DNA from: Methanothermobacter sp.
Lineage (GTDB): Archaea > Methanobacteriota > Methanobacteria > Methanobacteriales > DSM-23052
Direction of reading: 5' to 3'
Length of the DNA: 64,000 bases
Assembly (NCBI GenBank): GCA_030055615.1
Contig: JASFYN010000001.1
Coordinates: 451,267-515,266 of the forward strand
Of this stretch, positions 9,515 through 10,953 are shown piece after piece. Under the pieces are notes generated by a model. The model had not been told where the DNA came from. It saw only the letters and a program-made list of their open reading frames with translations, and did not search any database. The translations under genes were made by a program, and so were the position numbers. Numbering within the stretch: the stretch's first letter is position 1; every line of letters starts with the position of its first letter.

Positions 9515-10603
9515 ATGGAAGAGGGTCAAAGCATTTTTGATTACATAAGAGAGCATAAAAAGACGATTATATTATCATTTTTGGTTGTTGCGATTTTAAT
9601 ATTCATTCTAGGTTTATTTGCCGGTTTTGAGGGGATACTTTTTGCCTTGGAGGGGACTGATCCGTATTTTTTGGTTTTGAATTTTGTGTTTGAGGGCATG
9701 ATACTTGTTTTGTGGACTTTTCGTTGGCGGTTGATACTTAACCTTGTGGATGAGTCTCCTAAATTTTCTTCTTTATTTCTCATGTTACTTGCAAGCATTT
9801 TTGGAAATAATATAACACCAGGGGCTGCTGGGGGTGAACCTTTGAGGGCTTATCTTCTCTTTGAACTTAGAGGAACGCCTTTTGAGGTAGGTTTCGCGTC
9901 CTCAACTGCGGATAGAGTGTTTGAATTCATGCCATTTGCTATAATATCTTTACTTTCAGCTATTCTTATCATGACATGGGAAGTTTCTATTTGGACTCGT
10001 TTCATAGTGAGTTTCCTTATAATATTTACCATAGTAGTTTTTTCAGTGGCGATTTATGCTGGAGCTAGGCGGGATGTAGCCCAGAGGATAGTTTTGGGTA
10101 TAATGAAGTCTGTTTTACCCTTCATTAGGAATATAACTCATAGAAGGTTTGAATTTGGAAATTTGAGGGATAGGATAATTTTTTACGTTAACAGGTTTAG
10201 TAGTGGATTTTCAATGGCGTTAACTGACAGGAAGGTGTTAGTAATAGGTTTTTTAATTTCCTTGATTATGTGGTTTTTCGATTTAACCCGTATTTATATC
10301 TGTTTTCGGACTATTGGTGTGGAGCCTCCAATAGCTCCATTGATTATAATTTACACTGTGGGGATTCTAATATCGCTTTTACCATTACTTCCAGGTTCCC
10401 TTGGGTTGAGAGAGGGTATAATCGTCGCCCTTTTTACAGTTACTGGGATATCAGCGGATCATGTGATGGCAGCAAGTGTTATTGATAGGTTGGCCAGTTA
10501 CATAACCCCAACTTTCTTCGGTTTTCTCGCCGCGATATATTATGGGAGAATTATCATAAGAAATCATCAAAAGAATCTGAAAGAGAAGATATACAAACTT
10601 TGA
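9515..10603 (+). CDS. UPF0104/flippase-like integral membrane protein
   Basis: A 362-residue protein with about eight transmembrane segments. Motifs GAAGGEPLRAYLL (about residues 109-121), STADRVFEF, and PGSLGLREG near residue 294 are the signature of the lysylphosphatidylglycerol synthetase TM/UPF0104 family, to which the archaeal glycosylation protein AglD's membrane domain belongs. A role in lipid-linked sugar handling is possible. It is the last gene of the DUF211 group, and the gar1-tfb promoter follows. Confidence 0.8.
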   Translation: MEEGQSIFDYIREHKKTIILSFLVVAILIFILGLFAGFEGILFALEGTDPYFLVLNFVFEGMILVLWTFRWRLILNLVDESPKFSSLFLMLLASIFGNNITPGAAGGEPLRAYLLFELRGTPFEVGFASSTADRVFEFMPFAIISLLSAILIMTWEVSIWTRFIVSFLIIFTIVVFSVAIYAGARRDVAQRIVLGIMKSVLPFIRNITHRRFEFGNLRDRIIFYVNRFSSGFSMALTDRKVLVIGFLISLIMWFFDLTRIYICFRTIGVEPPIAPLIIIYTVGILISLLPLLPGSLGLREGIIVALFTVTGISADHVMAASVIDRLASYITPTFFGFLAAIYYGRIIIRNHQKNLKEKIYKL

Positions 10604-10623: not shown

Positions 10624-10677
10624 ACCGAAAAGTTTATATATAACCACCTTGAAGATATAATATATAAAATTTTCGGT
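10624..10677. promoter_or_regulatory. Facing BRE-TATA modules upstream of gar1-tfb
   Basis: The plus strand carries ACCGAAAAGTTTATATA at 10624-10640, an ideal BRE plus TATA box, with a start expected near 10660 and the gar1 ATG at 10684. The minus strand carries ACCGAAAATTTTATATA, matching at 16 of 17 positions, on plus coordinates 10661-10677. The two modules face each other across 20 bases, and the second sits on the expected start of the first. TBP-TFB bound to the reverse module would compete with transcription of gar1-tfb. Confidence 0.7.
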
Positions 10678-10683
10678 TATATT

Positions 10684-10953
10684 ATGAGAGTGCTTGGGAA
10701 GATTTCACACATTTCTAACCGAGGTAATATCATAGCACGTTCGAAGAGCACACCACCCTTTAGAGCCAAGGTCTTCACATCAGAGGGACAATTAATTGGT
10801 AAAGTCCAGGATATCTTCGGCCCGACAAAAATGCCATATATTTTAATAAAACCAATTCGTGCAATAAATTCGAAAAAATTTGAGAAACGAGTTGGAGAAA
10901 CCTTATTTATAGAGAGAGAATGGGGGCGAAAAAAACGAAAAAGGAAAAAATGA
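10684..10953 (+). CDS. gar1: H/ACA RNP protein Gar1
   Basis: An 89-residue Gar1 homologue: a six-stranded RNA-guided pseudouridylation cofactor with [20 protein letters not shown] (about residues 30-49), the typical hydrophobic-Gly turn, and a basic C-terminal tail (RKKRKRKK). Gar1 works with Cbf5, Nop10 and L7Ae on rRNA pseudouridylation. Its TGA overlaps the ATG of tfb, so the two are translationally coupled. Confidence 0.93.

What the first reader, a model, noticed from the sequence alone, without database searches (positions are those of the whole stretch)
10624..10677. Facing, nearly identical BRE-TATA boxes control gar1-tfb
ACCGAAAA-x-TTTATATA occurs on both strands, 16 of 17 identical, pointing at each other; the reverse copy covers the expected forward start. 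TFB is the factor that reads the BRE and is encoded downstream. High TFB could occupy the reverse site and block its own transcription, a simple autoregulatory switch, and would also yield a short antisense RNA into the flippase-like gene.
Basis: partly seen in the sequence, partly recalled or inferred. Interest (0 to 1): 0.68.

Follow-up and report, generated by a model that had tools for sequence, protein, structure and literature searches.

The report
Opposed twin promoter before archaeal tfb
In methane-making archaea related to Methanothermobacter, the gene for the basic transcription factor TFB sits behind two nearly identical core promoters that face each other, a conserved layout found in these genomes only at this gene, which probably lets TFB limit its own production.

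Summary
Two BRE-TATA modules, 16 of 17 bases identical, face each other at 10624-10640 (+) and 10677-10661 (-) before gar1-tfb. Scored with a matrix from 16 other promoters of this genome, they rank third and second of all sites in the 64 kb window. The TATA centres are 28 bp apart, about the archaeal TATA-to-start distance, so each predicted start lies in the other's TATA box.

The reverse module is conserved: 4/4 genomes of the genus, 8/8 of the next family, and several lineages of a third. It is as conserved as the forward promoter, while the spacer varies. In 151 genomes of the order, the strict facing-pair search hit only gar1-tfb. Sampled genomes of the two nearest families have a single TFB gene.

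Best explanation (inferred): TBP-TFB on the reverse site covers the forward start and holds TFB level steady. An antisense role against the flippase is unlikely, because that neighbour is replaced in relatives while a reverse module stays. Methanobrevibacter lacks the facing module but has a different reverse TATA sharing the forward BRE. No transcript or binding data exist here.

The parts
10624..10631 (+). forward BRE (ACCGAAAA) of the gar1-tfb promoter
   Evidence: same motif before tRNA and rpS8e genes
10633..10640 (+). forward TATA box TTTATATA; centre 10636.5; also contains the predicted reverse start (~10638)
   Evidence: TATA at -26/-27 from PMC4158304
10641..10660. spacer between the two TATA boxes; sequence variable, length constant (18-19 columns's frame) in families f1 and f2, longer (27-32) in g8, g9, g11
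10661..10668 (-). reverse TATA box (TTTATATA on - strand); centre 10664.5; contains the predicted forward start (~10663)
10670..10677 (-). reverse BRE (ACCGAAAA on - strand); sense-strand TTTTCGGT lies just before the gar1 start
10684..10953 (+). gar1 (H/ACA RNP protein Gar1, 89 aa)
   Evidence: PF04410
10950..11888 (+). tfb (transcription factor B). ORF is open from 10920, but ATG 10950 overlaps the gar1 stop (ATGA) and relatives have a stop codon in the N-terminal stretch, so 10950 is the likelier start; gar1-tfb is an operon without an internal promoter-like site
   Evidence: (PF00382, PF08271)
9515..10603 (+). flippase-like gene (LPG_synthase_TM), upstream neighbour on the same strand; would be read antisense by the reverse promoter

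Best explanation
The pair is a self-limiting promoter. The forward module drives gar1-tfb. The reverse module is a second TBP-TFB site laid over the forward transcription start and first transcribed bases. When TBP-TFB occupies it, RNA polymerase cannot be loaded (or is turned the other way) at the forward promoter, so rising TFB lowers tfb output: negative autoregulation that holds TFB level steady. Shown here: the two modules, their match to real promoters of the genome, their conservation and specificity for tfb, single-copy TFB in the sampled nearest families, and the geometry. Inferred: that TBP-TFB binds the reverse site, that it blocks forward initiation, and that TFB is the sensed quantity.
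For: Reverse site is the second-best promoter match in the window, above the forward one; 0 of 16 control promoters has a comparable facing site. Reverse module conserved across 17 listed lineages at 91% mean pairwise identity, equal to the forward promoter, with a variable spacer. Strict facing-pair pattern hits only gar1-tfb: once per genome in genus and 8 selected genomes and 13 further hits in 151 genomes of the order, all at gar1-tfb. One TFB gene in all 4 f1 and 8 f2 genomes. No internal promoter-like site for tfb. The TBP gene promoter, in the loci where its upstream region was read, has no such pair. Sites downstream of BRE/TATA overlapping the start are known to block RNAP recruitment in archaea (MDR1, Phr, TrmBL1/Tgr; PMC4158304). 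A simple occupancy model gives falling output at high TFB if both sites can be filled.
Against: No transcript, footprint or dose data. Facing module absent in Methanobrevibacter-type genomes, Methanosphaera and Methanothermus, so it is not essential to all. Spacing is not fixed in f3 lineages. The GGT next to the start codon may be partly kept as a Shine-Dalgarno element (GGTGA in f2). If the two sites exclude each other, the model predicts lower output but no true decline with TFB.
Confidence: 0.5

Rival explanations
1. Active transcriptional interference: the reverse module is a working promoter that fires RNA polymerase leftwards from inside the forward TATA box, so the two promoters compete for the same DNA and polymerase. 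The ratio is fixed by site strength rather than by TFB dose. The short antisense RNA is a by-product.
For: Reverse site has full consensus strength. The 28-bp centre spacing places each start in the other's TATA box in f1 and f2. Bidirectional core promoters giving antisense RNA are documented in Pyrococcus furiosus, including in vitro (PMC6640164).
Against: Spacing of 36-41 bp in g8, g9, g11 breaks the exact reciprocal overlap. No antisense start known.
Confidence: 0.22
2. Non-functional bidirectionality: AT-rich promoter DNA acquired a reverse promoter without regulatory role.
For: Common in P. furiosus, where authors assume non-functional antisense RNA (PMC6640164). A reverse TATA sharing the BRE also occurs at the VAT (Cdc48) promoter of f2 and G001.
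Against: Neutral drift does not explain a 17-base module kept as tightly as the forward promoter over three families with a diverged spacer, only at one gene.
Confidence: 0.1
3. The conserved stretch is a 5'-leader or translation-start element of gar1 mRNA (TATATAAAATTTTCGGT directly before ATG), and its likeness to a reverse promoter is coincidence.
For: Distance from GG to the start codon (6-11 nt) varies less than distance to the forward TATA; GGTGA in f2 is a good Shine-Dalgarno sequence.
Against: A Shine-Dalgarno role explains only GGT(GA), not a perfect TATA box and BRE at the right spacing. The leader has no stable fold (z 0.1-0.35) and no Rfam family. Natural variants (AAAA to AAAC) are those also seen in forward BREs.
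Confidence: 0.1
4. The inverted repeat is the operator of a separate dimeric repressor that binds promoter-like half-sites.
For: Archaeal repressors often use palindromes at BRE/TATA or start (PMC4158304).
Against: Each half is a full core promoter by itself, identical to tRNA, VAT and rpS8e promoters. Spacing between halves varies between lineages, unusual for a dimer operator.
Confidence: 0.08

Closest known systems
Bidirectional BRE-TATA-BRE promoters of Pyrococcus furiosus (PMC6640164)
   Same: Core promoter elements on both strands at one gene start, no divergent gene, antisense RNA expected.
   Different: There one TATA box is shared by two BREs and transcripts diverge. Here there are two TATA boxes facing each other and the transcripts would overlap. 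Here the layout is specific to one gene and conserved.
Negative autoregulation by repressors overlapping the start (MDR1 of Archaeoglobus, Phr of P. furiosus; PMC4158304)
   Same: Site overlaps the transcription start of the regulator's own operon and would block RNAP recruitment.
   Different: Here the proposed regulator is the basal factor TFB itself with TBP, and the operator is a reversed core promoter.
Ordinary archaeal BRE/TATA core promoter
   Same: Sequence, spacing and strength of both modules.
   Different: The reverse copy has no gene to drive and lies over the forward start.

Membership tests
Archaeal BRE/TATA core promoter (each module) | Purine-rich BRE directly before an 8-bp TATA box, matching the genome's other promoters | tested here: met
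   scores 22.0 and 23.1 with a matrix built from 16 other promoters
Archaeal BRE/TATA core promoter (each module) | A gene downstream in the same direction | tested here: inconclusive
   Met for forward (gar1-tfb); not met for reverse, no leftward gene in any of the sampled relatives
Archaeal BRE/TATA core promoter (each module) | A transcription start 26/27 bp downstream of the TATA centre | not testable with these tools
   No start-site data for this or a related genome found
P. furiosus-type bidirectional promoter | One TATA box shared by two BREs, starts diverging ~50 bp apart | tested here: not met
   Two separate TATA boxes, centres 28 bp apart, facing; definition
Negatively autoregulated archaeal operon | Operator overlaps or follows the start site and binds the operon's own product | tested here: inconclusive
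   Site overlaps the predicted start and matches the element read by TFB, which the operon encodes and which is single-copy in f1/f2; binding not shown
Negatively autoregulated archaeal operon | Output falls as the product rises | not testable with these tools
   Needs in vitro transcription or expression data

The most novel reading that the evidence does not exclude
Across most Methanobacteriales the tfb promoter is kept under a TFB-TBP homeostat by a reversed core promoter, but the reversed module has changed position: facing, over the start, in f1, f2, g8, g9, g11; divergent, sharing a palindromic BRE core (TATATAAANNTATCGATANNTTTATATA) in Methanobrevibacter-type genomes; both in Methanothermobacter. 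That would be a general-transcription-factor autoregulatory circuit built only from core promoter elements.
Probability: 0.3. Interest if true: 0.8.

Novelty: new variant of a known kind. Interest (0 to 1): 0.6.

Why it matters
How archaea set the level of a single-copy basal transcription factor is, to my knowledge, not established. A conserved, gene-specific reversed TFB/TBP site at the tfb promoter gives a concrete, easily mutated candidate for direct self-control by a basal factor, without a dedicated repressor, and it can be tested with a purified archaeal transcription system.

Tried and rejected
Leftward gene for the reverse promoter: none in any of the sampled relatives; upstream neighbours read the same way. 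Antisense control of the flippase: neighbour is replaced by an IS element in G003 and missing in most sampled Methanobrevibacter loci. Structured leader: no fold signal, no Rfam match (the weak sub-threshold hits are chance). Hairpin upstream of the forward promoter in g8/g11: real-looking but lineage-specific, not part of the pair. Same layout at the TBP gene: not seen for f2 and f3; in f1 my script picked the wrong strand for TBP, so f1 was not read. Facing pair in Methanothermus fervidus-like G151: none. Facing BRE in Methanobrevibacter: only a TATA-like remnant CTGTATCATTTATATA, near shuffle level (p 0.02-0.2 per sequence). Literature on tfb autoregulation or on Methanothermobacter start sites: nothing found in the held open-access library, which lacks most subscription papers.

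Full report
OBSERVATION. The sequence at 10624-10640 (+) is ACCGAAAAGTTTATATA and at 10677-10661 (-) ACCGAAAATTTTATATA. They differ at one of 17 bases, lie on opposite strands and point at each other. gar1 (PF04410) starts at 10684 and tfb (PF00382 and PF08271) follows. gar1 and tfb overlap as ATGA at 10950-10953, and no promoter-like site above a score of 5.4 exists inside gar1, so tfb most likely depends on this promoter. The organism is a member of the Methanobacteriales; the nearest named record is MAG Methanobacteriaceae archaeon 41_258. Genomes of the collection are unnamed: f1/g1 is the window's own genus, f2/g2 the next family (Methanothermobacter by inference), f3 the rest (Methanobrevibacter, Methanosphaera and others by inference from the named loci).

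IS IT MORE THAN CHANCE. Exact CCGAAAANTTTATATA occurs four times in the 1.49 Mb genome: this pair, the promoter of rpS8e (window 62947) and that of VAT (L084). Weaker matches lie before tRNA genes and protein genes in the right direction, so the motif is the genome's strong core promoter. A matrix from 16 such promoters, without the gar1-tfb pair, puts the reverse module second (23.1) and the forward module third (22.0) of all positions in the window. They are the only facing pair with both sites above 10. The control promoters have best facing scores between -7.4 and 11.8. Caveat: the training promoters were found with a pattern resembling the forward module, so absolute scores lean towards it; the comparison with controls is less affected.

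GEOMETRY. The TATA centres are at 10636.5 and 10664.5, 28 bp apart. With the TATA box at -26/-27 and the BRE at -33/-34 (PMC4158304), the forward start is expected near 10663, inside the reverse TATA box, and the reverse start near 10638, inside the forward TATA box. The spacer keeps its length in families f1 and f2 (18-19 columns in the frame) although its sequence differs. In g8, g9 and g11 it is longer (27-32), so there the reverse module lies just downstream of the predicted forward start.

CONSERVATION. The reverse module is present in all four genomes of the genus (G003 keeps it while its forward BRE has drifted to ATCGTAAA) and in all eight f2 genomes. It is also present in f3 lineages g8, g9, g11 and in loci L003 and L004. 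L004 is the weakest (CCAAAAATATTATATA). Mean pairwise identity over the 17 listed sequences is 91% for each module; the sequences are related, so this is descriptive. A facing-pair search of 151 genomes of the order found 13 further hits, all at gar1-tfb, none in the reversed-pattern control (identity of the loci and coordinates). A relaxed pattern in eight genomes found exactly one place per genome, again gar1-tfb. The module is missing in Methanothermus-like G151, Methanosphaera, Methanovirga and Methanobrevibacter-type genomes.

A SECOND REVERSED MODULE. In Methanobrevibacter-type genomes the forward promoter is instead preceded by a reversed TATA box that shares the BRE core TCGA with it, at a fixed offset of 12 bp, in some species a perfect 28-bp palindrome. 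The strict pattern occurs once in each of 38 genomes, all of one genus. 29 of 30 fetched copies lie 41-64 bases before a Gar1 match, and the thirtieth is at a contig end. With one mismatch allowed, 82 of 151 genomes have it, mostly once each and at tfb wherever tfb coordinates were known. Known exceptions: the VAT promoter in f2 genomes and G001 and an extra copy in G040. Methanothermobacter (f2) has both reversed modules. Whether the two arrangements serve the same purpose is open. In a simple occupancy model, a BRE-sharing site only halves the maximum, whereas a facing site that can be filled at the same time makes output fall at high TFB.

NEIGHBOURHOOD. The upstream gene is a flippase-like gene on the same strand in f1, f2 and basal f3. 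In G003 an IS element has landed between it and gar1, with the pair intact. Of the 19 more distant loci sampled, only L012 still has a flippase hit. No leftward gene was found that the reverse promoter could serve. The reversed module therefore follows gar1-tfb, not the flippase.

EXPLANATION. The most economical reading is that the reversed TBP-TFB site acts on the forward promoter itself. The f1 and f2 genomes encode one TFB each, so the protein that would fill the reverse site is the product of the operon. Archaeal regulators bound downstream of BRE/TATA over the start site are known to prevent RNAP recruitment (PMC4158304). A TBP-TFB complex there should do the same or recruit RNAP in the wrong direction. 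The reverse site is predicted to be at least as strong as the forward one in nearly all listed genomes, so it would not be a reserve site used only at high TFB. The expected behaviour is a standing brake whose effect grows with TFB, a homeostat. Binding, blocking and dose dependence are inferred, not shown.

RIVALS. Active interference by leftward transcription is the nearest rival and may coexist. Non-functional bidirectionality is common in P. furiosus (PMC6640164) but does not explain strict conservation at one gene. A leader or Shine-Dalgarno role can explain only the GGT(GA) before the start codon. A separate repressor is possible, but each half is a complete core promoter.

NOVELTY. Autoregulation by start-site occlusion and bidirectional archaeal promoters are known kinds. 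A facing pair of full core promoters, conserved and specific to the gene of the basal factor that reads them, was not found in the held literature, which is incomplete. I rate it a new variant of a known kind.

Noticed in passing
tfb upstream regions of Methanobrevibacter-type loci, e.g. L034, L032, L049, L057: Reversed TATA box sharing the BRE core TCGA with the forward promoter, up to 28-bp perfect palindromes, strict form once per genome in 38 genomes.
   Followed up: yes
L223, L224, L226, L228, L231 near 1501-1528: The VAT (Cdc48-type AAA ATPase) promoter of f2 genomes and G001 has a TATA-BRE-TATA arrangement too, with no divergent gene.
   Followed up: partly
L005/L124/L125 and L002, ~15-60 bases upstream of the forward BRE of gar1-tfb: Inverted repeat with different but matching arms in two lineages (AAGGTTTTT/AAAAACCTT versus AAAGATATT/AATATCTTT) around a conserved loop AAAGGGAAAATTACTTTTAATATC.
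   Followed up: partly
L001 and L113 (G003), about 1.6 kb to 0.1 kb upstream of gar1: Broken transposase-like ORFs (an IS element) inserted between the flippase-like gene and gar1, with the facing promoter pair intact.
   Followed up: partly
L069 3155-4948; genus g5 and g10 genomes: TFB open frames of 546-631 aa instead of ~335 aa; L069 shows a K/T-rich stretch of about 280 residues before the zinc ribbon.
   Followed up: no
window 10920-10950: The annotated-looking tfb start at 10920 is probably wrong: ATG 10950 overlaps the gar1 stop and relatives have a TAA in the N-terminal stretch.
   Followed up: partly
L056 (SVBA01000033.1): A contig titled Erysipelotrichaceae bacterium carries a Methanobrevibacter-type gar1-tfb locus, so it is probably mis-binned.
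   Followed up: no
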